Source of the DNA: Hymenobacter monticola
GTDB lineage: Bacteria; Bacteroidota; Bacteroidia; Cytophagales; Hymenobacteraceae
Assembly (NCBI RefSeq): GCF_022811645.1
Contig: NZ_CP094534.1
Coordinates: 682,001 to 746,000 of the forward strand
Direction: 5' to 3'
Length of the DNA stretch: 64,000 nt
Part shown: piece after piece, positions 1,974-15,925 of the stretch
How the letters are laid out: every line of letters begins with the position of its first letter
Position numbering within the stretch: the first letter of the stretch is position 1
Notes under the pieces: generated by a model
Told to the model about the DNA's origin: nothing
Databases searched by the model: none
The model's input: only the letters and a program-made list of their open reading frames with translations
Made by a program: the position numbers and the translations under genes

Positions 1974-3232
1974 TTCGCCCGAATGGCAATTACCGGGTCC
2001 AGGTTGGCCGCCACGGCCGCGGGCACAATGCCGGCAATGACGCCGATGGCCACTGAAATGAGCAAGCCCAGCGCAATGCGGGCCGTGGTCATGGTGAGCG
2101 GCAGAGCGTCCTGCGGAATCGTTGTCACGAGCCAGACCAGGAAAAGGCCGGCCCCGCCGCCAATGAGGCACAGGCAGATGGCCTCGAACAGGAACTGAAA
2201 AAGGATGAAGAAGTTCTTGGCCCCCAACGACTTCTGAATACCAATGATATTGGTTCGCTCGCGCACCGACACAAACATGATGTTGGCAATGCCGAAGCCG
2301 CCCACCAGCGTGGCCAGCCCGCCAATCACGGCCCCGATGACACCGATGCGGCTGAACAGCGTGCCAATCATCGAGGCAATCATTTCGGGTCGGTTCAGGG
2401 CGAAGTTGTCTTCCTCCCGAGGCTTGAGGCCGCGGATGTTGCGCATCACGCCCTGCAGTTCATATTCCAAATCGAGCAGGCCCGCGTCCTCGTCGCGGCC
2501 TTTCACGGCGATGGACGTGCTCGGGCCGTTACCGTAGCCGGAAGTACTCACGCTGAACAGCTTGGCGAACAGCGGGAAGGGAATGATGCAGTTGTCGTCG
2601 TTGCTGGCAATGGTGAGCAGCTTTTTGCCCTCTTTCTCCATCACGCCGATGACGGTGAACGTGCGGCCGCGCACCTTAAACTCCTTGCCCAGGGCATTGC
2701 CGTTGGGAAACAGGTTTTCGGCAATGATGGCGCCGATGATGGCCACCGGCCGACCCGCGTCCATCTCCTGAGTAGTGAAATAGCGGCCTTCCTTGAGGGG
2801 CACGTTGCGCACCGTGCGGAAATCGTAGGTCACGCCCTGCAGTGCACAGTCAGCCACCGAGTTGGAGCCGGCTTTGAAGGTGTTGCTGCCGCTGGCGGCA
2901 AACATGGCCACACCTTTGTTATTCGGCCCAAGCTGACGGCGCAGCTGCTGAAACTCGCGCGGCGTGGGGTTGGGGCGGTTGAAGTATTTCCACCAAGGCG
3001 AGTCGGGCGAGAAAATGAACGGCCATTTCTGGACGTAAATGATTTTGTCGCCCACAAAATCGAGGCTGCTGCGAATGTTGGTTTCCAGCGAATCGACGAC
3101 GGTGAAGACGGCGATGATGGAAAAAATGCCCACCGTGACGCCCAGCAGCGACAGAATGGTGCGCAACAAATTGGCCTTGAGGGCGTCGAGGGCGAAGCGA
3201 AAGCTTTCGAAGACGAGACGAAGCGTGAGCAT
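1970..3232 (-). CDS. MacB/FtsX-type ABC transporter permease
   Basis: Permease of an ABC transporter of the MacB type, likely handling lipoproteins, peptides or drugs across the envelope. An N-terminal transmembrane helix (LLRTILSLLGVTVGIFSII) is followed by a large periplasmic core (roughly residues 45-290) and a C-terminal FtsX region with three helices, including SVRERTNIIGIQKSLGAK, the usual ATPase-contact loop. The start at 3232 (MLTLRLVFESF) gives 420 aa, the usual family size. A longer in-frame start at 3292 adds a non-hydrophobic extension and is less likely. No ATPase gene is adjacent, so its partner is elsewhere. The last codon and the stop lie in a palindromic repeat. Confidence 0.85.
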   Translation of the reverse strand: MLTLRLVFESFRFALDALKANLLRTILSLLGVTVGIFSIIAVFTVVDSLETNIRSSLDFVGDKIIYVQKWPFIFSPDSPWWKYFNRPNPTPREFQQLRRQLGPNNKGVAMFAASGSNTFKAGSNSVADCALQGVTYDFRTVRNVPLKEGRYFTTQEMDAGRPVAIIGAIIAENLFPNGNALGKEFKVRGRTFTVIGVMEKEGKKLLTIASNDDNCIIPFPLFAKLFSVSTSGYGNGPSTSIAVKGRDEDAGLLDLEYELQGVMRNIRGLKPREEDNFALNRPEMIASMIGTLFSRIGVIGAVIGGLATLVGGFGIANIMFVSVRERTNIIGIQKSLGAKNFFILFQFLFEAICLCLIGGGAGLFLVWLVTTIPQDALPLTMTTARIALGLLISVAIGVIAGIVPAAVAANLDPVIAIRAK

Positions 3233-3438
3233 AATGAACGGAGCGAGTGCAGAAAGAAGGAACGATGGCCGGTAGCGCCTGCAAAAGTGCACCGGATAAC
3301 TTTCGCCGCGGGCGGCGGTTTTTCGTAGAGGCGATTTACAAACTCAAAAGACGGGATTGCGCGGGGAAGTTGCTGACGGTGAAAGCCCGCCCGCAAAGCC
3401 AGCCTTCTCCAAAAAAACGATACTCCCGAAAAAAGCCG

Positions 3439-3446
3439 TACTTTTG
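3439..3446 (+). promoter_or_regulatory. Candidate -7 box for queA
   Basis: TACTTTTG matches the Bacteroidota -7 consensus TANNTTTG and stands 38 bases before the queA ATG. Bases 3233-3484 between the divergent ABC permease and queA hold no gene I can support. Confidence 0.5.
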
Positions 3447-3484
3447 CCTCCCCAAATTTCCGTATATTCCCCAATTACTGCCCT

Positions 3485-4540
3485 ATGGCGATGAAATTGC
3501 ATGAGTTCAAATTTGAACTCCCCGAGGAGCTGGTGGCCATGCACCCGGCCCGCAACCGCGACGAAAGCCGCCTGATGGTGGTGCACCGCGCCACCGGCCA
3601 GATTGAGCACCGCAACTTCAAAGATATTCTCGATTATTTTGACGAAGGCGACGTGTTGGTGTTCAACGACACGAAGGTATTCCCCGCCCGCCTCTACGGC
3701 AACAAAGAAAAAACCGGCGCTAAAATCGAAGTGTTCCTGCTGCGCGAGCTGAACAAGGAGCTGCGCCTGTGGGACGTGCTGGTGGACCCCGCCCGCAAAA
3801 TCCGCGTGGGCAACAAGCTGTACTTCGGCGAGTCGGACATGGTGGCCGAGGTGATTGACAACACCACGTCGCGCGGCCGCACCATCAAGTTCCTGTTCGA
3901 TGGCACCGACGAGGAGTTCCGTAAGGCGCTCTACGAGCTGGGCGAAACCCCGATTCCGAAGGAGGTTATCAACCGCGAAACCGAAGCGGCCGACAAGGAG
4001 CGCTACCAGACCATCTACGCCGAGCACATTGGCGCGGTGGCGGCCCCATCGGCCGGCCTGCACTTCACCCGCGAGGTGATGAAGCGCATGGAAATCAAGG
4101 GCGTGGAGCCGGCGTTTGTGACGCTGCACGTGGGCCTGGGCACCTTCCGCACGGTGGACGTGGAAGACCTGACCAAGCACAAGATGGACTCGGAAAACTT
4201 CATTGTGACGGCCCCGGCCTGCGAAGTGGTGAACAAGGCCCTCGACACCAAGAAGAAGGTGTGCGCCGTGGGCACCACCACCATCCGCGCCATGGAAGCG
4301 TCGGTGTCGGCCAATGCCCGCATGAAGCCCACGCAGGGCTGGATTGACCGGTTCATCTTCCCGCCCCACGATTTCAAAATCGCCAACTGCATGCTCACCA
4401 ACTTCCACATGCCGGAGAGCACGCTCATCATGCTGGCGTCGGCCTTCGCCGGCTACCCGCTGCTGATGGAAGCCTACAAGGAAGCCATCAAGGAGAAGTA
4501 TAAGTTCTTCAGCTACGGCGACGCCATGCTGATTCTGTAA
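3485..4540 (+). CDS. queA: S-adenosylmethionine:tRNA ribosyltransferase-isomerase
   Basis: QueA transfers and isomerises the ribosyl group of SAM onto 7-aminomethyl-7-deazaguanine in tRNA, giving epoxyqueuosine. It is a cytoplasmic enzyme of queuosine synthesis. Family motifs run the full length: [19 protein letters not shown] near the N-terminus, [16 protein letters not shown], the [13 protein letters not shown] segment, [13 protein letters not shown] and the C-terminal [20 protein letters not shown]. At 351 aa it has the normal family length. Two ATGs (3485, 3491) are both possible starts. The upstream neighbour is divergent. The gene has its own terminator and ispD follows on the same strand. 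Confidence 0.96.
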
Positions 4541-4560
4541 GCATTCGAGCCGCTGGCTTT

Positions 4561-4605
4561 CGGAACGCCGGAATTCCTTGTCAGGAGTTCCGGCGTTCTT
4601 TTTTG
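4561..4605 (+). terminator. Terminator after queA
   Basis: The stem GAACGCCGGAA(T)TCC / GGAGTTCCGGCGTTC is followed by TTTTTT, 20-65 bases past the queA stop and just before ispD. Confidence 0.85.
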
Positions 4606-4621
4606 ATAGAACTTCGCGCCG

Positions 4622-5350
4622 ATGAAAACCCCTACCCTTCCCCGCCAGGCCCCCGGGCTTCCCAGCGCCCAGGCACCCCGGCTCGCCATTCTGGTAGCCG
4701 GCGGCAGCGGCACGCGCATGGGCGCCGACCGGCCCAAGCAGTTTCTGCTGCTGCGCGGCGAGCCCGTGTTGCTGCACACGCTGCGTCGCTTTGCCGAGCC
4801 GGCGCTGGGCGTGCGGGAAATTGTGCTGGTGCTGCCGGCCGACCAGATTGATACCTGGCAGGCGCTGTGCGCGCAGTTCAGCATTGATATTTCGCACCGG
4901 CTGGTGACGGGCGGCGCCACGCGCTGGGCTTCGGTGAAGGCCGGCCTAGCAGCGCTGAAGGACTATCCGGAGGGCCTAGTGGCCGTGCACGACGGCGTGC
5001 GCCCGCTGGTGTCGCGCCAGGTGGTGGAGCGCACCTACGCCGCCGCTGCCACGCACGCCGCCGCCGCCGCCGCCGTGATGCCGAAGGACTCGGTGCGGCT
5101 GGTGTCGCAGCACGGCTCCGCGGCCCAGAACCGCAGCCGCCTGCGCCTGATGCAAACGCCCCAGACGTTTGAAATCGACCTGCTGCGCCGCGCCTATGTC
5201 ATGCCGGAGCTGGCCTCCTTCACCGACGACGCCACGGTGGTGGACGACCTGTGCCGCGTGCAGCTGGTGGATGGCGACTACCGCAACCTGAAAATCACGA
5301 CGCCGGAGGATTTGGTGGTGGCGGAGGCGCTGCTAGCAGCCGCACTGTAG
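4622..5350 (+). CDS. ispD: 2-C-methyl-D-erythritol 4-phosphate cytidylyltransferase
   Basis: IspD couples CTP to MEP in the non-mevalonate isoprenoid pathway. The nucleotide-binding signature is present near residue 25 (VAGGSGTRMGADRPKQFLLL), followed by VHDGVRPLVS and the product-site segment QTPQTFEIDLLRRAY with SFTDDATVV. At 242 aa it is slightly longer than usual, because ~18 Pro/Ala-rich residues precede the catalytic domain. The ATG at 4622 lies directly after the queA terminator, so the leader is short. The stop TAG (5348-5350) forms the first three bases of a perfect 25-base palindrome arm. Confidence 0.95.
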   Translation: MKTPTLPRQAPGLPSAQAPRLAILVAGGSGTRMGADRPKQFLLLRGEPVLLHTLRRFAEPALGVREIVLVLPADQIDTWQALCAQFSIDISHRLVTGGATRWASVKAGLAALKDYPEGLVAVHDGVRPLVSRQVVERTYAAAATHAAAAAAVMPKDSVRLVSQHGSAAQNRSRLRLMQTPQTFEIDLLRRAYVMPELASFTDDATVVDDLCRVQLVDGDYRNLKITTPEDLVVAEALLAAAL

Positions 5351-5424
5351 CGCGAACTTTGTAGTTCGCGTGCCAGCACGATACCCGAACGGCGCGGGCC
5401 ACGCGAACTACAAAGTTCGCGCTA
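5348..5424. repeat. Family C inverted repeat (TAGCGCGAACTTTG type)
   Basis: Perfect 25-base arms at 5348-5372 and 5400-5424 flank a 27-base spacer. The first three bases are the ispD stop codon. The right end runs into TACTTTCG (5423-5430), a -7-like box 24 bases before the next gene, so the element may also supply part of that gene's promoter. Confidence 0.85.
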
Positions 5425-5454
5425 CTTTCGCCCTCCCACCCATCAATCCCCCCA

Positions 5455-6255
5455 ATGCAATACACCAGCCTGCTCTACGACGTGCGCCCCGACGGCGTGG
5501 CCACCATCACCCTGAACCGCCCGGAGGTCTTCAACGCCTTCAACGACCCCATGAGCTACGAGCTGCAAGACGCCCTGAAGCAGGTGGCGCGCGATGCGGC
5601 CGTGCGGGCCGTGGTGCTTACGGGTGCCGGCCGCGCCTTCTGCTCGGGCCAGGACCTGAAGGCGGCGCAGGAAGCCGCGGCCGCCGAGGGCAAGCCCCGC
5701 TCCTTCTACGACTCGCTGCACCAGCGCTACAACCCCATCATCCGGGCCATGCGCGGACTGCCCAAGCCCATCATTGGGCGTCTCAATGGCGTGGCGGCGG
5801 GCGCCGGCTGCTCGCTGGCCCTGGCCTGTGATGCCATTGTGGCCAGCAGCGACGCCTCGCTGATTGAGGTGTTCATCAACATCGGGCTGGTGCCGGATTC
5901 GGGCTCGTCGTGGTTTTTGCCGCGGCTGGTGGGCACGCTTAAGGCGTTTGAGCTGTGCAGCCTGGGCTCAAAAGTGCCCGCCGACGAGGCGTTGCGGCTG
6001 GGCCTGGTAAACCAGGTGGTGGCGCCCGAGCAGCTGGATGAAGCCACTTACGCGCTGGCCGCCCGCTACGCCTCGGCACCTACCAAGTCCATCGGCCTCA
6101 TCAAGCAAATGTTGAACAAGGCCGGTGCAGCCACCCTGGACGAGATGCTCGATTACGAAGCCCACTGCCAGCAGATTGCCGGTGAATCGGCCGACTATCA
6201 GGAAGGAGTGAAGGCTTTTAGTGAGAAGCGCAAGCCGGCATTCACCGGAAACTAA
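5455..6255 (+). CDS. Enoyl-CoA hydratase/isomerase family (PaaG-like)
   Basis: Crotonase-fold enzyme acting on an acyl-CoA. Visible features are the CoA-binding segment ATITLNRPEVFNAFND, the first oxyanion-hole loop GAGRAFCSGQDLKAAQ, and the second, RLNGVAAGAGCSLALACD. GLVPDSGSSWFLPRLVG follows with the Asp expected at the PaaG-type active site. SGQDL and PDSGSSW resemble PaaG (ring-1,2-epoxyphenylacetyl-CoA isomerase), but no other phenylacetate gene is nearby, so a role in general fatty-acid oxidation is equally possible. The 266 aa length is normal. The gene is transcribed alone and ends before a terminator. Confidence 0.85.
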   Translation: MQYTSLLYDVRPDGVATITLNRPEVFNAFNDPMSYELQDALKQVARDAAVRAVVLTGAGRAFCSGQDLKAAQEAAAAEGKPRSFYDSLHQRYNPIIRAMRGLPKPIIGRLNGVAAGAGCSLALACDAIVASSDASLIEVFINIGLVPDSGSSWFLPRLVGTLKAFELCSLGSKVPADEALRLGLVNQVVAPEQLDEATYALAARYASAPTKSIGLIKQMLNKAGAATLDEMLDYEAHCQQIAGESADYQEGVKAFSEKRKPAFTGN

Positions 6256-6300
6256 AACGCTGTACTAACTGATTTTCGCAGCACGCACTTTCCATCAATG

Positions 6301-6335
6301 AAAAGAGCCGTCCCAAAAAGGACGGCTCTTTCTAT
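6301..6335. terminator. Terminator between convergent genes
   Basis: AAAGAGCCGTCC / GGACGGCTCTTT, a compact stem with A- and T-rich flanks, serves the convergent genes ending at 6255 and 6374. Confidence 0.8.
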
Positions 6336-6373
6336 ATGCAGCGGAAAACTGTTGGGCCGAAGCCCCCGGTGTA

Positions 6374-7210
6374 CTAGCGGAGCGTGATGGTGCGGGTGCG
6401 GCCGTTGATGGACACCGTGGCGGAATTGTCGCAGGTGCCGTTGCCGTAGTCCATTACCATGGTTTTGCCCTTGGTGTTGCTGATGCTGATGGCGCCCTGC
6501 ACGAAATACTTAAAGCAGTCGCCGCGCTTGATGAGGGGCGTCTGGATGGTGGTGGTGTAGGCTACGCCTTTGCGGTTGGTGCCGGCCGAGGAGCCGGTCA
6601 CGCTGAACACGTCGTCGGCAAACTGGGGCGTGCCGAAGCCGGCGGTTTGGGTGAAAGTCCAGCTGGCGGTCCAGGAGTGGGTGCCGCCATTGTTGGCGCG
6701 GATGATGCTGGCGTTGGTCACATCCACCGAGAACGAGCCCAGCCCCAGGTCGGTGAAGGTGCGGGTGGCGGTGTGCTGGTTGCTGTTCACGAAGTAGTTC
6801 TGGCGCGTGACCACGGCGCCGGCGCGGCGCGTCAGCACATCGGTGGTGAAGCGTACCAGAATCTGGCCGCGGCGGTTGCGGCCGTCGGGGCACAGGCAGT
6901 CGGTGGGACCGAAGTCGATGGTGAGCGTGCGGGTGTTATAGTCGTAGGTGCGGGTGGCGCAGGCGCCGAAGCGGGTGCGGAACTCGGCGTCGGTGGTGGC
7001 GTAGGCCGAGCCCTGCACGCTGGGGTCGGTGGGGCCGGCCAGCTTGGCGTCGGAGCTCACGGCGGTTTCAATGTTGTCCTCGCTGCGGTCTTCGGCGGTG
7101 GTGATGTCGTCGGGGGCGGCATCGTCGGCTTTGCGGTTGCAGGCGGTGGTGAGCAGCAGGCCGCTGGCGAGGCAGGCAAACGTGAGGGAACGGAGTGAAA
7201 GAGTGCGCAT
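6374..7210 (-). CDS. Secreted lipoprotein of unknown function
   Basis: 278 aa with a signal peptide and lipobox (LLLTTAC, Cys at about residue 24), so it is probably anchored to the outer membrane. An acidic linker (DDITTAEDRSEDNIE) is followed by a Thr/Asn-rich, beta-looking domain with six further Cys, for example DCLCPDG, RGDCFKYF and NGTCDN. No catalytic motif is recognised. Similar lipoproteins are common in Bacteroidota, but I cannot name a family. It ends convergently with the enoyl-CoA hydratase and diverges from the DUF4142 cluster. Confidence 0.7.
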   Translation of the reverse strand: MRTLSLRSLTFACLASGLLLTTACNRKADDAAPDDITTAEDRSEDNIETAVSSDAKLAGPTDPSVQGSAYATTDAEFRTRFGACATRTYDYNTRTLTIDFGPTDCLCPDGRNRRGQILVRFTTDVLTRRAGAVVTRQNYFVNSNQHTATRTFTDLGLGSFSVDVTNASIIRANNGGTHSWTASWTFTQTAGFGTPQFADDVFSVTGSSAGTNRKGVAYTTTIQTPLIKRGDCFKYFVQGAISISNTKGKTMVMDYGNGTCDNSATVSINGRTRTITLR

Positions 7211-7383
7211 GGCTAAAAGAAAGTGAAAATATAACGATGTTGAAAGATGAACTGCCGTTGTGGCCGGTTGGAAGCCGCTGTTGCAAACAAGTTTAAAGCC
7301 CGCTTAAAAAATCTTCAAAAACCCCCTACCTGGCCCCTCGTATAGCGGGCAACGCCTTTTCACCCCACTCAAACTCCACTCCT

Positions 7384-7983
7384 ATGCGCCTTTCACTGAC
7401 TGTTTTGCCTGCCGTGCGGCGGCTGTTGCTGGGCGTGGCCGTGCTACCGCTGGCTGTGGCTTGCTCCTCCAACGGGAGCGGTGGCCAGGACGCCGAAGCC
7501 CTGAACGAGCGCAAAATCAACGAAGCCGACATCACCGACAAGCAGGAGGCCGACGCCAAATTCCTGGTGCGGGCCGCCAGCAACGCCCTGCTGGAAGTGG
7601 AGCTGGGCAAGCTGGCCCAGGCCCGGGCCACGGCGCCGGCCGTGCGTGCTTTCGGCACGGACGTGGTGAAGAGCCGGCTCGACCTGCTGGCGGCCCTGCG
7701 CACCCTGGCCGCGGCCAAGCAACTGGCCGTGCCTTCGGCGCTGGGCGACGACGAACAGAGCGCCTACCACGAAGCCAGTACCCAAACCGGCAGCCAGCTC
7801 GACAAGCGCCTGATGGCGCTGCTGGTGAAGGTCCAGAAGCAGGACGAGGATGCTTTTGATGACATGAAAGACGACGCTTACGACGGCGACATCCGCGGCC
7901 TGGCGGCGAAGTACCACGCCCCCCTTGAGGAGCAGCTGGATGCCGCCAAAGAAGCGGCCGAAGCGGCGGAAAAACTGCCGTAA
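7384..7983 (+). CDS. DUF4142 lipoprotein, copy 1
   Basis: 199 aa. The signal peptide has lipobox-like residues (LAVACSS). The helical DUF4142 domain (PF13628, ferritin-like by fold prediction in the literature) contains ADAKFLVRAASNALLEVELG and the paired-helix segment after it. The biochemical role of the family is not established and no metal ligands can be assigned here. It is the first of three tandem paralogues (next at 8060 and 8867) and the most diverged, with HH-type residues of the other two replaced. It probably acts in the periplasm or outer membrane. Confidence 0.8.
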   Translation: MRLSLTVLPAVRRLLLGVAVLPLAVACSSNGSGGQDAEALNERKINEADITDKQEADAKFLVRAASNALLEVELGKLAQARATAPAVRAFGTDVVKSRLDLLAALRTLAAAKQLAVPSALGDDEQSAYHEASTQTGSQLDKRLMALLVKVQKQDEDAFDDMKDDAYDGDIRGLAAKYHAPLEEQLDAAKEAAEAAEKLP

Positions 7984-8059
7984 CGGCTTCGGCACGGCTT
8001 CAGCATTTGCTCACGTAGCTAGCTGAATTTTAGCACTTCACCAACACCTTTCTTTTCCG

Positions 8060-8662
8060 ATGAAACGCCCCTTCATTACCCTCTTTAGCACGGCCATAGT
8101 GCTTCTGGCCGCTACCAGCTGCAATTCCAACGACTCCGTGAAAGAAGCCCAGAAAACCAACGAGGTGAAAGCCGACAGCGCAACGGCCAATACCGAAATG
8201 GGCAAGGTTGAGAAGACAGGCATGGACTATGATTCCGAGTTCCTGACCAAGGCGGCCAGTGGCGGCATGCTGGAAGTAGAGTTGGGCAAGCAGGTAGTGG
8301 CCCGCGCCATCACGCCGCAGGCCAAAGAGTTTGCCCAGCAAATGGTGGACGACCACTCCAAAGGCAACGCCGAGCTGATGGCCCTGGCCACCAAAAAGAA
8401 CATCACTCTGCCTACTACGCTGGGCGACGACCACCAGAAAGTGCTGAAGGAAGTGACCGAAGAAAAAGGCGTGAAAATGGACCAGAAATACCTCAAGGAA
8501 ATGCTGGAAGACCACGAGGAAGACGTGAAAGAGTACACCGACGCCTCCATCAAAGCGGCGGACCCCGACATCAAGGCCTTCGCGGCCAAGACGGTGCCGA
8601 TGCTGAAAATGCACCTCGACATGGTGACGAAGATGAAGCCGGCCGTTGACGCCGCCAAGTAG
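8060..8662 (+). CDS. DUF4142 lipoprotein, copy 2
   Basis: 200 aa with signal peptide and lipobox (LAATSC). The DUF4142 domain is clear: SEFLTKAASGGMLEVELGKQ, then AQQMVDDHSKGNAELMALA and LEDHEEDVKEY, with His residues in the two helices that are usual for the family. Only 76 bases separate it from copy 1, so the two could be co-transcribed. A terminator follows. Confidence 0.85.
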   Translation: MKRPFITLFSTAIVLLAATSCNSNDSVKEAQKTNEVKADSATANTEMGKVEKTGMDYDSEFLTKAASGGMLEVELGKQVVARAITPQAKEFAQQMVDDHSKGNAELMALATKKNITLPTTLGDDHQKVLKEVTEEKGVKMDQKYLKEMLEDHEEDVKEYTDASIKAADPDIKAFAAKTVPMLKMHLDMVTKMKPAVDAAK

Positions 8663-8685
8663 GCTGCTTCTGCTCAATTCCTAAG

Positions 8686-8717
8686 GTTCGCTCCGGGTTC
8701 GGGGCGAACTTTTTTAT
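8686..8717 (+). terminator. Terminator after DUF4142 copy 2
   Basis: GTTCGCTCC / GGGGCGAAC stem followed by TTTTTT, 25 bases past the stop. Confidence 0.8.
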
Positions 8718-8866
8718 ACCCGACTACGGCTCAGCTTACTGATATTCAACGGTTCTGCTTAGCAATTTTATTAACCAAACCGTGCAACTACAACCCGTAA
8801 TTATTCCGTACCACCCGCAAGCACGTCATTGCTAACACCTTTTTCTAACTTTTCCTTTCCCACACC

Positions 8867-9538
8867 ATGGTACGTTCCTCCCTTCTTCCCCTGCTGGCTA
8901 CGGGCCTGCTCACGCTGGCCTCCTGCGGCGACGGCAACAAATCGACCACCGAAAGCAGCACCGACAGCAACATGGCCAATACGCCGGCCACTGGCACTGA
9001 TACTACCGCCGGGGCAGGCTCCGCCATGGGCGATAGCAGCGCGATGGGCGGCGATGCGATGAGCGGCGGCTCGGCCAAGGCGGACCCCAACGGCCCCACC
9101 GGCCCTCACAAAGACGACAAGGAATTCATGATGACGGCCGCGCACAGCGACCAGAACGAGATTCAACAAAGCAAAATGGCCCTGGCCAAGGGCGTGACCG
9201 GCATGGCCAAGGAAATGGCCAACAAGATGATTGCCGACCACACCAAGTCGACCAACGACCTGAAAGCCATTGCCGCCAAAAAAGGCCTGACCCTGCCCAC
9301 CGACATGGACGCCGAGCACAAAGCCCTGGCCCCGGCCATGGAGAAACTCTCGGGCAAAGAGTTTGAGACCCGCTACCTGGCCCAGATGCAGACCGACCAC
9401 CAAAAGACGGCCAATACCATGGCTTCCCACGAGAAAATGACCCAGGACGCCGACCTGAAAGCCTTCATCGGCAAGACCCTGCCGGTGGTGGAACAGCACT
9501 TGGGCATGGCCCAGCAAGGCTCGAACATGAAGATGTAA
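8867..9538 (+). CDS. DUF4142 lipoprotein, copy 3
   Basis: 223 aa with signal peptide and lipobox (LTLASCG). A ~65-residue Ser/Thr/Gly/Met-rich linker comes next, longer than in the two upstream copies, then the DUF4142 domain (EFMMTAAHSDQNEIQQSKMA, NKMIADHTKSTNDLKAIA, MQTDHQKTANTMASHE). The linker would hold the domain away from the membrane, which is inference. The 200-base gap before it, beyond the copy 2 terminator, implies its own promoter. Confidence 0.85.
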   Translation: MVRSSLLPLLATGLLTLASCGDGNKSTTESSTDSNMANTPATGTDTTAGAGSAMGDSSAMGGDAMSGGSAKADPNGPTGPHKDDKEFMMTAAHSDQNEIQQSKMALAKGVTGMAKEMANKMIADHTKSTNDLKAIAAKKGLTLPTDMDAEHKALAPAMEKLSGKEFETRYLAQMQTDHQKTANTMASHEKMTQDADLKAFIGKTLPVVEQHLGMAQQGSNMKM

Positions 9539-9565
9539 GCATCGGTTTTCGACGCTTCATCCTGC

Positions 9566-9601
9566 AAAAACGCCGCTTCGGGAAACCGGGCGGCGTTTTT
9601 C
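9566..9601 (+). terminator. Terminator after DUF4142 copy 3
   Basis: AAAAACGCCGC / GCGGCGTTTTT stem and T-run after the third DUF4142 gene. Confidence 0.8.
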
Positions 9602-9840
9602 ATTGGTCGCCATCCTAATATTGCCAGGCTGGCCTTTGGGCCGCACCTAATCCCATGGATGGCAACGAGAAAGCCCAACACAACCGCGACGCGTTTCAGC
9701 TGGAGCGCCTGATTTTGTTCACCGATGCCGTGTTTGCCATTGCCATCACGTTGCTCGTCATTGAGCTGAAGGTGCCGGAGCTGGAACACCGCACCGAAAG
9801 GGAGGCCTGGCACGGCTTTTTGCAACTGATTCCCAAGCTA

Positions 9841-10634
9841 GGAAGTGTTAACAGTGATTGGTAGTTTGGGGCATGGAAAGAATGCTCACGGATGCGCAAT
9901 GGGCGCGGTTGGCGCCCCTCTTGCCGGGTCGGGAAGGCACGAGCGGTGGGCGCGGGCGCGACAACCGCCAGTTCGTGGAAGCCGTGCTCTGGCTGGCGCG
10001 CAACGGGGCGCGGTGGCGGGCCCTGCCGCCGGAACGCGGCAACTGGCACACGACGTACACGCGCTTCCAGCGCTGGGCGGCCGCGGGTGTGTGGCAACGC
10101 GTGTTCGAGGCCGTGCAGGACGAAACCGCCCTGCACACGCTGCTGGTGGATTCGACCACCGTGCGGGCCCACCAGCACGCGTCCGGGGCGCGCAAAAAAA
10201 CGGACCGCAGGCCCTCGGCCGCAGCCGCGGCGGGCTGACGTGCAAGCTGCACGCCGTGGCCGACGCCCGCGGCCGGCCCGTGCGCTGCTGCCTCACGGCG
10301 GGCCAGCGCCACGACGCCCCGCAAGCCTTGCCCCTGCTCGAGGGCTTGGCCCCGGTCCACCTCATCGCCGACCGGGGCTACGATTCCGACCCGCTGGTGG
10401 CCGCTTTGGCTGCCCGCGGCACCCACGCCGTGATTCCGCCCCGGCGCAAGCGCCGGCACCCGCGGGCCTACGACCCGGCCCGCTACGCCCAGCGCCACCC
10501 CATCGAGCGACTCTTCAGCCGCCTCAAGCAATTTCGACGCGTGGCCACGCGCTACGACAAGTTGGACCGGCATTTTCTGGCTTTTATTCACTTAGCAGCA
10601 ACTGTGCTCTGGCTGCGCGATTGTTAACACTTCC
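9841..10634 (+). mobile_element. IS5-family insertion sequence (IS427-like), 794 bp
   Basis: Perfect 13-base terminal inverted repeats (GGAAGTGTTAACA) lie at 9841-9853 and 10622-10634, flanked by TA on both sides (9839-9840, 10635-10636). The duplication can equally be read as CTAG with a one-base-shorter terminus. The element holds one transposase in two overlapping frames. Short length, TA/CTAG target and the two-frame DDE transposase fit the IS427 group. Confidence 0.9.
9873..10627 (+). CDS. IS5-family DDE transposase, made by -1 frameshift
   Basis: OrfA runs from ATG 9873 (MERMLTDAQWARLAPLLPG) to a stop at 10238. OrfB is in the -1 frame and continues to 10627. The switch point is the A7 run at 10194-10200. 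Slippage there turns KKTDRR into KKNGPQALGRSRGGLT, the sequence expected of this family. The DDE residues are D in LLVDSTTVRAH (OrfA), D in LIADRGYDSDPL and E in IERLFSRLKQFRR (OrfB), so only the fusion carries a full triad. The stop TAA lies in the right terminal repeat. It appears intact and potentially active. Confidence 0.9.
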
Positions 10635-11150
10635 TAGTAGGCTTCTTCATCAGCTTCTTTATCATTGCTATCTACTGGGTGGCGCACCACCGCATCTTCC
10701 GCTTCGTGCGGCACCTGGACAGCCGACTGATTTGGCTGAACATGCTGTTTCTGCTCTGTATTGTTCTCATGCCCTTCACCACGGCCTACCAGAGCGAGTA
10801 CGCCATGCTGCGCACGCCCTGGATTATCTACAGCATCAACATCATTGCCACGGGGCTGATGCAGGCCCAGCTGCAAAACTACCTGCGGCACCCAGGCCAC
10901 GGCGTCACGGCCGCCCACGAGCGCACCCACCCCGACCTCGACCTGCTGCGGCCCCTCTCGTCGCCCATCGTGTTTGGCACCAGCATTTTGCTGTCGTTCT
11001 TCGTGCAGCCCTGGATGCTGCGAATGGTGCCCGCGGTGGCATTTCCGCTGCTGGCCCTGCTGCTGCGCCGGCGGCACCAACGCCTGGAGCAACGCTACGC
11101 TCAGTCGGCAGTTGAACGGCAACATTCGTGAGGTTACTTCTCGGGGAATA

Positions 11151-11187
11151 AAAAGAGGCCGGCAAATACTTATTTGCCGGCCTCTTT
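11151..11187. terminator. Terminator, probably the original uvrA terminator
   Basis: AAAGAGGCCGGCAAATA / TATTTGCCGGCCTCTTT. The longer T-run (TTTTTAT) lies on the minus strand, so it best fits transcripts ending after the uvrA tail remnant at 11205. It can also stop the TMEM175 gene. Confidence 0.75.
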
Positions 11188-11204: not shown

Positions 11205-11319
11205 TCAGGCCGTGGCGTACTTGCTCGTGCGTAGTTCCTCGGCCAGGAAACGGGCCGTATGGCCTTTGCCGGCCTTGGCCACCTGCTCGGGCATGCCCTG
11301 GGCCACGATGGTGCCGCCT
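11205..11319 (-). pseudogene. Displaced 3' end of uvrA
   Basis: Minus-strand translation gives [20 protein letters not shown], then [17 protein letters not shown] and a stop, matching the UvrA C-terminus encoded at 12845-12966. Over 104 aligned bases I count 12 differences. Only two codons change amino acid (T to M, G to S). Mostly silent differences mean both copies were coding while they diverged. Homology stops abruptly at 11319. The fragment has no start and lies next to a terminator placed as expected for the native uvrA end. Confidence 0.85.
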
Positions 11320-11346
11320 TGGGCCGACCGATGCCATTGCCCAATC

Positions 11347-12702
11347 TCAGCGCCCTCCTTTCAGACGAGCCACCGCTTCTTCGAAGTTCTCGGCGCGCAG
11401 GTATAAGATTCTCAGTTTGCCTTCACGACGCTTGTCGAGCAAGCCCATGTTTTCGAGGTGCATCAGGTCGTTCCGGGCCGTGTCGTACACCACACCGAAA
11501 CGATGTTGCACTTCCCGAATGGTCCAGATGGCGTCCGGGTCAGTTATCAACTCTTGCAATATGGAAACCTGACGCTGATTGAACTGGTCGAACTGCCGGA
11601 AGCTGCGCAGCTGTTTTTTCTCGGCCACCTTGCGCTCGATGTATTGCTGCAGGCTGGTGAACGCTAGGTCGAGGGTCTTCACCTGATAATTGATGAAATA
11701 CGTCAGGTCGTTGCCGTCGTATTCGGTATAGAGGTAGGCCCGTGCATATTGGGAGGCCGATTTATGAATGATACGCGAAATCGACATGTACTCCAGTTGC
11801 CAATAGCCCTTGCGCAGCAAATACCAATAGAACACCGCCCGGGCCGTGCGGCCATTGCCGTCGGCAAAGGGATGGATGTATCCGATAAGAAAGTGCAGAA
11901 TGGAGGCCCGCACAATGGGGTGAATAAACGAGCCCGACGTACCGCTTTGGCTGGGAATCTCGTCGTTAGCCAGCGCGCAGTACCAGCGCAGCAGTTCCGG
12001 CAAATGCCGCTGCAACGGCGGCACGTGTACCACCTCCCCGGTCGTAAAATCCTCGACCCGCACGTCGTCGTTTTGCCGGAACTGGCCTTCGTGCGCGGGG
12101 TCGCCTAGGGAGCCCTGCGTCATGCGGGCCTGAATTTGACAAAGCATCTCCGGCGTAAGAGCTTGTTTTTTTTGCTCCAGAATGTATTGAATGGTTTGGT
12201 AATTATTGAAAATCATCAGTTCCGAAGCATTGCGTGGCTTGCGCTTCTTCCGTAGCATGTCTTTGGCTACTTCCCGGGTTGTCGCAGCTCCCTCTAGCTG
12301 GCTGGAGGCAATAGCTTCCTCCATAATAGAACCCACCAGATAGCGTGTACGGTCCTCAGCCGGTATCAGGCTGTCGGTCTGCATAATTCCCCCCATGTAC
12401 AGGTCAAACCGGTGCAACTTTTCTAAGGTGGGCTCAGTCACTTGGTACCGAAACCGACACCCGGGGATGTTTGGTACGGCTAATTCCCGTAAATTACCCA
12501 GCCGGCTGCTCTTAACTAGCAGCCACACCGGCCCCGGAACAAAACCATCGGGCAGTTTTTGCCTTTTCAACTCAGACCAATAAAGGTATTCGTAATTGGC
12601 TTTTCGAACCACGTTATTCACGTCTCCGCTGGTCCAATAGCGGACCATCTCTTCGGAGCCAAAATTTTCAAAAGAACTAGCAGGCGGGTGCTCAATGTTC
12701 AT
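11347..12702 (-). CDS. Fic-domain protein with C-terminal winged helix
   Basis: Fic proteins usually transfer AMP from ATP to target hydroxyl groups. The core motif is intact: HPFADGNGRTAR, with catalytic His and anion-binding GNGR. Upstream, SSQLEGA fits the inhibitory helix motif (S/T)xxxE(G/N), which places it among self-inhibited class II Fic proteins. The last ~90 residues (QRQVSILQELITDPDAIWTI, REVQHRFGVVYDTARNDLMH) look like a winged-helix DNA-binding domain. The start at 12702 (MNIEHPPASS, 451 aa) leaves the palindrome at 12707-12746 outside the gene. Base composition is visibly more AT-rich than the neighbours, suggesting transfer. Confidence 0.9.
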   Translation of the reverse strand: MNIEHPPASSFENFGSEEMVRYWTSGDVNNVVRKANYEYLYWSELKRQKLPDGFVPGPVWLLVKSSRLGNLRELAVPNIPGCRFRYQVTEPTLEKLHRFDLYMGGIMQTDSLIPAEDRTRYLVGSIMEEAIASSQLEGAATTREVAKDMLRKKRKPRNASELMIFNNYQTIQYILEQKKQALTPEMLCQIQARMTQGSLGDPAHEGQFRQNDDVRVEDFTTGEVVHVPPLQRHLPELLRWYCALANDEIPSQSGTSGSFIHPIVRASILHFLIGYIHPFADGNGRTARAVFYWYLLRKGYWQLEYMSISRIIHKSASQYARAYLYTEYDGNDLTYFINYQVKTLDLAFTSLQQYIERKVAEKKQLRSFRQFDQFNQRQVSILQELITDPDAIWTIREVQHRFGVVYDTARNDLMHLENMGLLDKRREGKLRILYLRAENFEEAVARLKGGR

Positions 12703-12706
12703 AATA

Positions 12707-12817
12707 CTAAAACTTACCGATTTATATAACAATCGGTAAGTTTTAGCAAAGATAACCCGTCCGACCGAAACTTACCGATTTGTGTAAAAATCGGTAAGTT
12801 TCGGTCGGACGGGTTAT
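12707..12817 (-). promoter_or_regulatory. Two palindromes and -7 box upstream of the Fic gene
   Basis: Palindrome 1 has perfect 16-base arms (12707-12722, 12731-12746). Palindrome 2 has perfect 30-base arms (12752-12781, 12788-12817) with a 6-base loop. ACTTACCGATT occurs in all four arms. On the minus strand TATCTTTG (12747-12754) matches the -7 consensus and lies between the palindromes, so palindrome 1 would cover the start of transcription. This fits an operator, possibly bound by the Fic protein's own winged helix (inference). Palindrome 2 also follows the uvrA stop and could form a 3' hairpin, though it has no T-tail. Confidence 0.6.
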
Positions 12818-12841
12818 TTATGGCTAACCGGCGGTGTATTT

Positions 12842-15800
12842 CTACAACTTATTATCTCCTGCGTACTTGCCTGTGCGTAGCTCCTCGGCAAGGAAGCGGG
12901 CGGTGTGGCCCTTACCGGCCTTGGCCACCTGCTCGGGCGTGCCCTGGGCTACAATGGTGCCGCCGCCCGCGCCGCCTTCGGGGCCAACGTCGATGATGTG
13001 GTCGGCCACCTTAATCAGGTCGAGGTTGTGCTCGATGATGAGGACGGTGTTGCCCTTGTCGGCCAGCTTCTGAAGCACGTCGGCGAGGTGATTAATATCC
13101 TCGAAGTGCAGGCCGGTGGTGGGCTCGTCGAGGATGTAGAAGGTCTTGCCCGTATCCTTTTTGCTGAGCTCGGTGGCCAGCTTCACGCGCTGGGCCTCGC
13201 CGCCGCTCAGCGTGGTGGCCTGCTGGCCCAGCGTGAGGTAGCCCAGGCCCACGTCGTTCAGGGTCTTGATTTTGCGCAGGATGCGGGGCTGGAACTCGAA
13301 GAACTCCACGGCCTTCTCCACGGTCATGTCCAGCACGTCGGTGATGGACTTGCCTTTGAAGCGCACTTCCAGCGTTTCGCGGTTATAGCGGCGGCCTTTG
13401 CAGGTTTCGCAGGGCACGTGCACGTCGGGCAGGAAGTTCATCTCGATGGTGCGAATGCCGGCGCCCTCACAGGTTTCGCAGCGCCCACCCTTCACGTTGA
13501 AGGAGAAGCGGCCGGGGCCGTAGCCGCGGATTTTGGCTTCCGCCATCTCGCCAAACAGCTGCCGTATTTCGGTGAACACGCCCGTATAAGTAGCTGGGTT
13601 GGAGCGCGGCGTGCGGCCAATGGGCGACTGGTCCACTTCAATCACCTTGTCCACCAAGTCCAGCCCTTCGATGCTGCCGTACGCCAGTGGCTCCTTCTTC
13701 GAGTTGAAGAAGTGCTGGTTCAAAATCGGGTACAGCGTGTCGTGGATGAGTGTAGACTTGCCTGAGCCCGACACGCCCGTGACGGCCACCAGCTTGCCTA
13801 ATGGCACTTTCAGGGTCACGTTTTTCAGGTTGTTGCCCTTGGCGCCTTTCAATACCAGCTCGGTGCCTTCGCCCTTGCGCTTTTTCTTTTGCAGCTCGAT
13901 GTGCTTCTGCCCGCTGAGGTACTGCGAGGTAAGCGAGCCGGAGTTGAAAATCTCCTGCGGCGTGCCCGAGGCCACAATGTGGCCGCCGTGAATGCCCGCG
14001 CCGGGCCCAATGTCCAGCACATGGTCGGCGTTGAGAATCATGTCCTTGTCGTGCTCTACCACAATCACCGAGTTGCCGATGTCGCGCAGGTGCTGCAGGG
14101 CCTTGATGAGCCGCTCGTTGTCGCGCTGGTGCAGGCCGATGCTGGGCTCGTCCATGATGTAGAGCACGCCCACGAGCTGGGTGCCAATCTGGGTGGCGAG
14201 GCGGATGCGCTGGCTTTCGCCGCCGCTCAGCGTGCGCACGGGGCGGTGCAGGTTCAGGTAGTCGAGGCCCACTTCGAGCAGGAAGCCGATGCGCTTGCGG
14301 ATTTCCTTCAGCAGCTCGCGGGCGATGACGTTCTGGCGCTCCGTCAGGCGGTCTTCCAGGCCCTCAAACCAGCCAGCCAGCTCGTTCAAATCCATCACCG
14401 ACAGCTCGCCGATGTGCTTGTCGTCCATCTTGAAGTGCAGGCTTTCCTTTTTGAGGCGGTAGCCCTGGCATTCGGGGCAGGGCTGGGCCTGCGCGTACTG
14501 CGCAATCCACTCGCGGATGTTGTCCGACTCCGAATCCATCTGCCGGCGCAGGAAGGGAATAATGCCCTCAAATGGCTCCGTAAAGGCGCCCTTGCCACTG
14601 TCAGCTTCGTCCTCCGAAATGCCGTGCAATAGGCGCTTCAGCAACTCCTCGGGCAGCTTGTCGATGGCGGTGTTCAGCGTGGCTTTGTTCTTCTTGAGGA
14701 TGAGCGAGAGCTGCTGGAAAATCCAGATATCGCGGTACTCGCCCAGCGGCGCGATGCCGCCGCGGCTGATGCTCAGCTTGCGGTCGGGCAGCACGGCTTC
14801 TTCCGTGATTTCCTGCACCTCGCCCAGTCCGTTGCAGGTGGGGCAGGCGCCGTAGGGCGAGTTGAACGAGAAGGTGTTGGGCGCCGGGTCGTCGTAGGCG
14901 ATGCCGGTGGCCGGGTCCATCAGGAAGCGCGAGAAGAACTGCGGCTGGGCCTTTTTGGCGTCGGGGTCGAGCACCAGCATGGTGCCCTTGCCGTGCGTGA
15001 GGGCGTTCTGCACCGAGCCCGAGAGGCGGAATCGGTCTTCTTCCTTCACAATGAGCCGGTCGATGACAATTTCGATGTCGTGGATTTTGTAGCGGTCCAC
15101 CTGCATCTTGGGCGTGATGTCGAGGATTTCGCCGTCTACCCGCACCTTGGCAAAGCCCAGCTTGGCAATCTTCTGGAAATCCTCGCGGTAGTGGCCCTTG
15201 CGGCCCTTCACCACGGGCGCCAGCACCACCAGCTTCTTGCCGTCGAAGTGCTTGAGGATATAGTTGATAATCTGGTCATCCGACTGCCGAATCATCTTCT
15301 TGCCCGTGGCGTAGCTGAAGGCTTCGGCCGTGCGGGCGTAGAGCAGGCGCAGGAAATCATAGATTTCGGTGATGGTGCCCACCGTGGAGCGCGGGTTGCG
15401 CGAGGTGGTCTTTTGCTCGATGCTGATAACCGGCGACAGGCCCTCAATCTTGTCCACGTCGGGCCGCTCCAGCCCGCCCATGAAGCTGCGGGCGTAGGCC
15501 GAAAACGTCTCCATGTAGCGCCGCTGCCCCTCGGCATAAATGGTGTCGAACGCCAGGCTGCTCTTACCCGAGCCCGAGATGCCCGTGAACACCACCAGCT
15601 TATTGCGCGGAATCTGCACGCTCACGTTTTTGAGGTTGTGCTCGCGCGCGCCGTACACTTCAATGAAGGGCGCGTCGATGTGGTGCGTGGAGCCATTGGC
15701 TGCGGGCGTGGTCTCAACCGGCGGCAGTGTCTCGGGCGTCTGGTGTTGCAGGGCCACTGCCACGCTGGCCGGGTTGGGCTGGCTGGCCGCGGCGGCTTCC

Positions 15801-15925
15801 GGTTCGGTGAGGGCGCCGGCGAGCTGCTTTTTGAGCGCGGCGGCGGGGGCAACTGGTTTTTTCTTGGCGGAAGCGGCGGCTTTGGGAGCTTTGGCAACCG
15901 GGTCAGCAGTGGATTTTTTGGCCAT
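12842..15925 (-). CDS. uvrA: Excinuclease ABC subunit A
   Basis: UvrA is the damage-sensing ATPase of nucleotide excision repair and loads UvrB. Both ABC modules are complete: Walker [17 protein letters not shown] and [16 protein letters not shown], signatures [12 protein letters not shown] and [12 protein letters not shown]. Zinc-binding CPTCNG, CPECQG and CETCEG...CETCKG pairs are present. The 1027 aa length exceeds the usual ~940 because about 80 Ala/Lys/Pro-rich residues precede the first domain. They include [14 protein letters not shown] and are probably disordered. The ATG at 15925 is preceded 24 bases upstream by TACCTTTA. The final ~40 codons appear to have been acquired together with the Fic locus. 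Confidence 0.96.

What the first reader, a model, noticed from the sequence alone, without database searches (positions are those of the whole stretch)
11205..12966. uvrA tail exchange: Fic gene between the new and the old uvrA 3' end
A 115-base fragment of the uvrA 3' end lies beyond the Fic gene, next to a terminator suited to uvrA. The functional uvrA has its own different tail. I count 12 differences in 104 bases, but only two amino-acid changes, so both tails were under selection when they diverged. This looks like integration at the uvrA end in which incoming DNA restored the gene with a foreign tail and brought a Fic gene, the same logic used by tRNA-targeting islands but with a protein gene and no integrase visible.
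Basis: partly seen in the sequence, partly recalled or inferred. Interest (0 to 1): 0.75.

Follow-up and report, generated by a model that had tools for sequence, protein, structure and literature searches.

The report
Defence gene between two uvrA ends
In this Hymenobacter genome a probable anti-phage (Fic) gene sits between two copies of the end of the DNA-repair gene uvrA, and the same layout in related species suggests that such genes can move between species by swapping the end of uvrA through ordinary recombination, with no integration enzyme in sight.

Summary
A 104-base copy of the uvrA 3' end (12 mismatches; 10 of 12 changed codons silent) lies beyond a Fic gene, beside a terminator. 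The KYAGDNKL tail was seen only here (1 of 100 loci). The layout recurs: uvrA-Fic-uvrA tail in H. rubidus, decayed stages in the H. caeli clade, and uvrA-Abi-like gene-uvrA tail in another species. Fic alleles differ far more at silent sites (dS about 2.1) than all 32 and 11 neighbouring genes compared, so they did not simply descend with the genomes; yet Fic seems joined to the uvrA piece at one and the same point. The protein matches PADLOC's SoFic anti-phage profile. Best reading: a defence cassette inserted with a long target duplication, whose copied uvrA tail then serves as a homology arm for transfer between species. Closest known: 'insertion with long target duplication' of restriction-modification genes. 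Not shown: a foreign donor (104 bases are too few), the vehicle, or phage defence. The tRNA-island (integrase) analogy is not supported.

The parts
12842..15925 (-). uvrA, complete and in frame (1027 aa), with the unusual C-terminus [10 protein letters not shown]
   Evidence: UvrA domains; tail found in 1 of 100 genus loci and 0 of 120 listed database UvrAs
12861..12964 (-). working copy of the repeated uvrA 3' segment
12752..12817 (-). perfect palindrome, 30-nt arms and 6-nt loop, just after the uvrA stop; likely uvrA terminator and first Fic operator
   Evidence: kept as a palindrome with other letters in four further species; function inferred
12747..12754 (-). TATCTTTG, promoter-like (Bacteroidota -7 box TAnnTTTG, recalled)
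   Evidence: sequence; consensus from memory
12707..12746 (-). second palindrome (16-nt arms, 8-nt loop) with the same core as the first; likely second Fic operator
   Evidence: function inferred
11347..12702 (-). Fic gene, 451 aa, with HPFADGNGRTAR and SSQLEG
   Evidence: PF02661; PADLOC SoFic profile E 3.8e-44; model nearest to Shewanella oneidensis Fic
11205..11318 (-). uvrA 3'-end fragment ending SKYATA-stop: the probable old end of this genome's uvrA
   Evidence: same tail type and same following terminator in Fic-free relatives
11319..11346 (-). possible decayed 5' part of the fragment, up to the Fic stop
   Evidence: by eye and by analogy with G064 and G077; not significant in this genome alone
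11152..11187 (-). terminator-like inverted repeat, probably uvrA's original terminator
   Evidence: same repeat directly after uvrA in G056 and G045

Best explanation
A SoFic-like defence gene with its palindromic operators once inserted at the 3' end of a Hymenobacter uvrA with a target duplication of about 158 nt, so that the Fic stop codon is followed at once by a second copy of the uvrA tail. From then on, DNA holding uvrA-Fic-uvrA tail has homology to a recipient's uvrA on both sides of Fic, whatever genes lie further downstream. Ordinary homologous recombination (one crossover in uvrA and one in the tail repeat, or a single crossover with a circle) can put the cassette into another species: the recipient's uvrA gets the donor's end and stays whole, and its own old end and terminator are left beyond Fic. 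In the window genome this happened recently enough for the old end to be almost undamaged. Shown: the anatomy, the empty sites, the recurrence, and Fic divergence far above that of neighbouring genes. Inferred: the original duplication, the crossovers, the direction of transfer and the vehicle.
For: Empty sites with the fragment-type tail and terminator in G056 and G045. A second copy of the own uvrA tail in 3 of 100 loci: G064 (218), G000 (148), G106 (123), next best 36, reverse-complement control up to 42, reversed control up to 30. Decayed stages in one clade: G077 Fic, G011 chimeric Fic, G047 30-residue Fic remnant and a decayed tail (39 nt, 87% to a relative's tail, E 5e-7), G018 a lone hairpin, G048 empty. 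The stretch at the Fic stop matches uvrA -158..-129 in G077 (0 of 4000 random windows as good); uvrA -123 lies 31 nt (G000) and 32 nt (G064) from the first base of the Fic stop, so the joint looks shared. Fic dS 2.07 for G000-G064 against 0.29-1.29 in 32 other genes; 2.09 for G000-G077 against at most 0.86 in 11 others; 2.10 for G064-G077 against 0.47 for uvrA. In G000 10 of 12 changed codons are silent; in G064 3 of the first 8 codons but only 2 of the following 38 have amino-acid changes: decayed 5', intact 3'. Of seven Hymenobacter genomes with a Fic of 50% or more identity, five have it beside uvrA, against none outside Hymenobacter among 103 loci searched.
Against: The tail sequences do not by themselves show a foreign donor, and no species with the GDNKL tail was found. 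The shared joint is weak in G011 (35 of 4000), G000 (55 of 4000) and not significant in G047 (910 of 4000). G021 has Fic beside uvrA without a tail copy and after uvrA's own terminator, so Fic can arrive otherwise. Fic in G115 and G083 lies elsewhere. No vehicle was found. NG86 dS values near 2 are close to saturation and Fic has lower G+C than uvrA (0.52-0.57 against 0.61-0.64 in the species read correctly), so dS is a rank, not a clock.
Confidence: 0.55

Rival explanations
1. One ancestral insertion with long target duplication at uvrA, inherited vertically and lost many times (for example by recombination between the two tails), with no transfer between species.
For: Fic, hairpin and tail joint look homologous in G000, G064 and the G077/G011 clade; stages of loss are visible in G047, G018 and G048.
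Against: Fic silent divergence exceeds all 32 (G000-G064) and all 11 (G000-G077) other genes compared; several losses without scar would be needed in the uvrA tree; G011's Fic is a mosaic.
Confidence: 0.2
2. Local duplication of the uvrA end in this lineage, with Fic arriving in between or later, and no tail exchange.
For: Over 104 nt the working tail is no farther from the sisters than the fragment.
Against: The sisters have the fragment-type tail and terminator, none has KYAGDNKL; 10 of 12 changed codons are silent; the same layout in H. rubidus.
Confidence: 0.1
3. Site-specific integration at the uvrA 3' end by a recombinase that is absent or acts from elsewhere, as in tRNA-gene islands.
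For: Gene end restored at the insertion; repeated use of the uvrA end by two unlike cargoes, Fic and an Abi-like gene. A pneumococcal satellite prophage is reported to integrate upstream of uvrA with a 24-bp site (passage of PMC10383233).
Against: No recombinase between the repeats; the repeat is long and of different length in G000, G064 and G106 (104, 139, 89 nt); no Fic relative beside uvrA was seen outside Hymenobacter, while repeats of other genes flank some of them.
Confidence: 0.07
4. The fragment is kept as a small gene that restrains Fic, in the place where the antitoxin AS1 lies next to E. coli Sofic.
For: AS1 (47 aa) lies downstream of EcSofic (section 2.1 of PMC12249575); in G064 an ATG overlaps the Fic stop (TAATG) and opens 50 aa in the uvrA frame; silent changes dominate in G000.
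Against: The frame is 19 aa in G077 and 13 aa in G011, both with open Fic genes, and in G000 that start is missing. No resemblance between AS1 and the fragment was tested.
Confidence: 0.05

Closest known systems
Insertion with long target duplication of restriction-modification genes (Nobusato et al. 2000, Helicobacter pylori; seen only through passages of PMC1643837, PMC3154945 and PMC3031569)
   Same: A gene for defence is inserted between long direct copies of the target, with an empty site in relatives.
   Different: Here it is a Fic gene (and once an Abi-like gene), the target is the end of one core gene used repeatedly in a genus, the two copies differ by 12%, and the cassette seems to have moved between species.
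Integrase-driven islands and prophages that restore the 3' end of a gene (tRNA genes, icd; recalled)
   Same: Incoming DNA supplies a new 3' end and leaves the old end beyond the insert.
   Different: No integrase and no fixed short core found; single-gene insert.
SoFic / Fic-HTH proteins (Shewanella SoFic, E. coli Sofic, CccR)
   Same: Fic core, inhibitory-type motif, palindromes at its own promoter; PADLOC SoFic profile; nearest solved fold. CccR is reported to repress its own promoter at a palindrome (passages of PMC9755527).
   Different: Far below the NCBIfam SoFic equivalog cut-off (49.6 against 550 bits); lies between uvrA copies.
Homology-facilitated illegitimate recombination (abstract of PMC3240628 in the listing)
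   Same: One homologous and one illegitimate joint could have made the first uvrA-Fic-uvrA tail arrangement.
   Different: Explains one founding event, not the later shared joint with diverged Fic alleles.

Membership tests
Insertion with long target duplication | insert flanked by long direct copies of the target | tested here: met
   104 nt, 88%; 139 nt, 91% in G064
Insertion with long target duplication | empty site without duplication in a close relative | tested here: met
   G056, G045
Insertion with long target duplication | insert is a restriction-modification system (as in the cases described) | tested here: not met
   Fic gene
Integrase-type island restoring a gene end | site-specific recombinase in the insert | tested here: not met
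   only the Fic gene lies between the uvrA copies
Integrase-type island restoring a gene end | fixed short attachment core | tested here: inconclusive
   long repeats of different lengths; shared start near uvrA -158 in the Fic cases
SoFic | Fic motif HxFx[D/E]GN[G/K]R | tested here: met
   HPFADGNGRTAR, invariant in 5 relatives
SoFic | [S/T]xxxE[G/N] inhibitory motif before the Fic core (motif recalled) | tested here: met
   SSQLEG, residues 143-148
SoFic | match to the PADLOC SoFic profile | tested here: met
   E 3.8e-44, 149.5 bits; PADLOC's own threshold not shown
SoFic | NCBIfam SoFic equivalog cut-off | tested here: not met
   49.6 of 550 bits
SoFic | C-terminal winged-helix DNA-binding domain | tested here: inconclusive
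   model ends H376-387, H395-402, H406-418, two strands, helix; no separate domain match
SoFic | protection against phage by AMPylation | not testable with these tools
   needs an experiment
PD-T4-5 / Abi_2 (G106 cargo) | profile match | tested here: inconclusive
   PADLOC PD-T4-5 E 6.5e-12; Pfam Abi_2 21.1 bits, below its cut-off of 25.6

The most novel reading that the evidence does not exclude
Single-gene defence cassettes can turn a core gene into a private docking site: by carrying a copy of that gene's 3' end they bring their own homology arm, restore the gene at each landing, and spread between species by the cell's own recombination, with long self-regulating palindromes at their other edge. 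This would be an integrase-free way for defence genes to form a hot spot, and could explain why SoFic-like genes in other phyla also often lie between direct repeats.
Probability: 0.3. Interest if true: 0.7.

Novelty: new variant of a known kind. Interest (0 to 1): 0.5.

Why it matters
How single defence genes without integrases move between species and settle at fixed spots is poorly understood. This locus suggests a concrete, testable answer (a carried copy of a core-gene end as homology arm), with empty sites, intact and decayed stages, and a second unlike cargo in one genus.

Tried and rejected
Phylogeny of the tails: 104 nt are too few. Identity along uvrA in 100-column windows showed no clear breakpoint; the last, partial window is lowest for all seven relatives but one. 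Donor search: no GDNKL tail in the other 99 loci or in the 120 listed of 1572 database hits. Vehicle search: Fic relatives on plasmids (15 records at E <= 1e-50) and phages (19 records at E <= 1e-5) are all under 60% identical; none in viral contigs (176 pattern stretches, none confirmed); no uvrA tail on plasmids at 1e-8. uvrA end as a general defence hot spot: ten of the 21 uncommon downstream genes listed had no PADLOC match at 1e-5 (Pfam), so this is not a general defence island.

Are long direct repeats a mark of the whole Fic family? Score 60 or more: 12 of 78 loci (82 entered, 4 too short) against 5 of 218 control ORFs, and 5 of 22 further loci (24 tested of 26; two from earlier searches left out). 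But without operator-type palindromic repeats it is 8 of 100 against 5 of 218, P 0.03; one of the eight is a repeat array (L297) and one (L212) scores as high inverted. Only suggestive.

Errors of mine: one search read G000's Fic on the wrong strand (its G000 Fic rows and G000 Fic G+C are void; redone); one search tested L178 on the wrong strand and entered one H. terricola locus twice (L041 and L180); several loci are genomes already (contig lengths), so locus counts are not fully independent; misread the uvrA stop of L078 (mended), and L166 (G083) has a frame-shifted uvrA end. In one search some loci have short flanks, so absence of uvrA there is weak.
Full report
What is there. On the minus strand the order is uvrA (12842-15925), a perfect palindrome with 30-nt arms (12752-12817), a promoter-like TATCTTTG (12747-12754), a second palindrome (12707-12746), a Fic gene (11347-12702), a uvrA 3'-end fragment (11205-11318) and a terminator-like inverted repeat (11152-11187). 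The 104-nt repeat has 12 mismatches; 10 of the 12 changed codons are silent. The fragment ends SKYATA, the working gene [10 protein letters not shown].

All 120 same-genus genomes searched have a UvrA match; I fetched the uvrA end, with 1.8 to 8 kb downstream, for 100 of them. GDNKL occurs in 1 of these 100, G000 itself, and in none of the 120 UvrA proteins listed of 1572 hits. The nearest relatives in the uvrA tree, G045 and G056, have no Fic beside uvrA; their uvrA ends TSKYATA and is followed at once by the inverted repeat that in G000 follows the fragment. So the fragment with its terminator looks like the native end, and the working uvrA carries another tail. The sequences of the two tails do not settle this: both are about equally far from the sisters.

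Recurrence. A copy of the own uvrA tail within 3 kb downstream scores 123 or more in 3 of 100 loci; the next score is 36, and the controls reach 42 and 30. The three are G000, G064 (Fic; 139 nt, 91%) and G106 (an Abi-like gene; 89 nt, 88%, whose last 56 nt before the final codon are identical to the working copy). The G106 cargo matches PADLOC PD-T4-5 (E 6.5e-12) and, below the cut-off, Pfam Abi_2. In G077 the stretch at the Fic stop matches uvrA -158..-129 (0 of 4000 random windows as good); G011 gives 35 of 4000, G064 0, G000 55 and G047 910 of 4000.

Lateral history. Fic silent divergence is 2.07 between G000 and G064, where 32 other genes have 0.29-1.29, and 2.09 between G000 and G077, where 11 others stay at or below 0.86; between G064 and G077 it is 2.10, with uvrA at 0.47. 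Amino-acid identity is 87-89%. The Fic alleles thus seem to have parted before these genomes did. Since uvrA -123 lies 31 and 32 nt from the first base of the Fic stop in G000 and G064, Fic and fragment probably travelled together; this is inference.

The Fic protein. It matches the PADLOC SoFic profile but stays far below the NCBIfam SoFic equivalog cut-off. An AlphaFold2 model (mean pLDDT 86.6) is nearest to Shewanella oneidensis Fic (Foldseek E 4.3e-11, TM-scores 0.46 and 0.54). Sofic is reported to act by abortive infection through AMPylation (start of the abstract of PMC12249575; section 2.1 read), and the Fic-HTH protein CccR to repress its own promoter at a palindrome (passages of PMC9755527). 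The palindromes fit that role: 60 of 99 Fic-family loci have a palindrome with arms of 10 or more upstream, against 26 of 306 control ORFs (some genomes enter twice). In five Hymenobacter species the hairpin beside uvrA has 26 comparable pairs, 15 of them with changes on both sides and no broken cell of 130 (these stretches were picked as palindromes, so the changes in letters are the informative part).

Other genera. None of 103 Fic-family loci outside Hymenobacter showed uvrA directly beside Fic (the 103 include six Hymenobacter entries, two of them with uvrA; one more, L229, has a 43% UvrA-like gene about 1.9 kb away; some flanks are short). Some lie between repeats of other genes: in Ca. 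Desulfobacillus denitrificans (L219) a 99-nt, 96% copy of an inner part of atpC begins 2 nt after the Fic stop, with the whole atpC about 0.9 kb before Fic; in a MAG (L221) a 5' piece of a 352-aa gene lies before Fic and the whole gene after it. This resembles the long target duplications described for restriction-modification genes.

Reading. An original insertion with long target duplication, followed by transfers in which uvrA and its copied tail act as two homology arms, explains the restored uvrA, the native end left beyond Fic, the decayed 5' and intact 3' part of the G064 fragment, the confinement of the uvrA link to one genus, and the lack of an integrase. It does not explain why SoFic-like genes insert with long duplications in the first place.

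Print. Searches returned no paper that, by its listing, treats a uvrA-Fic arrangement; no paper held both 'Hymenobacter' and 'anti-phage defense'. The three papers with uvrA and attachment-site terms were checked for uvrA: one reports a pneumococcal satellite prophage integrating upstream of uvrA, the others concern other matters. The library holds only part of the literature, and the founding papers on long target duplication were not available to me (for one of them).

Noticed in passing
window 9838-10637: An insertion sequence with a DUF4096 (IS4/5-type) transposase frame and perfect 16-nt terminal inverted repeats (CTAGGAAGTGTTAACA) splits a TMEM175-like gene into 9655-9864 and 10679-11131.
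   Followed up: partly
L190, L192, L202, L204, L208, L223, L229, L325, L326: In many Fic-family loci of other Bacteroidota a second copy of the operator palindrome lies right at or just after the Fic stop, so that Fic is flanked by palindromes on both sides.
   Followed up: partly
L308 (G501:C6), 2733-10805: A Fic relative sits in an array in which a repeat of about 400 nt (71-76% alike) recurs between successive ORFs, like a cassette array.
   Followed up: no
L084 (G018), 38-99 nt after the uvrA stop: A lone palindrome with 26-nt arms, like the Fic operator hairpin, follows uvrA although no Fic is there; it may be the scar of a lost cassette.
   Followed up: partly
   Followed up: partly
L237, 5457-5545 and 7395-7483: A Fic relative near ychF lies between two 89-nt copies (80%) that, read by eye on the other strand, look like the end of a tyrosine integrase.
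   Followed up: no
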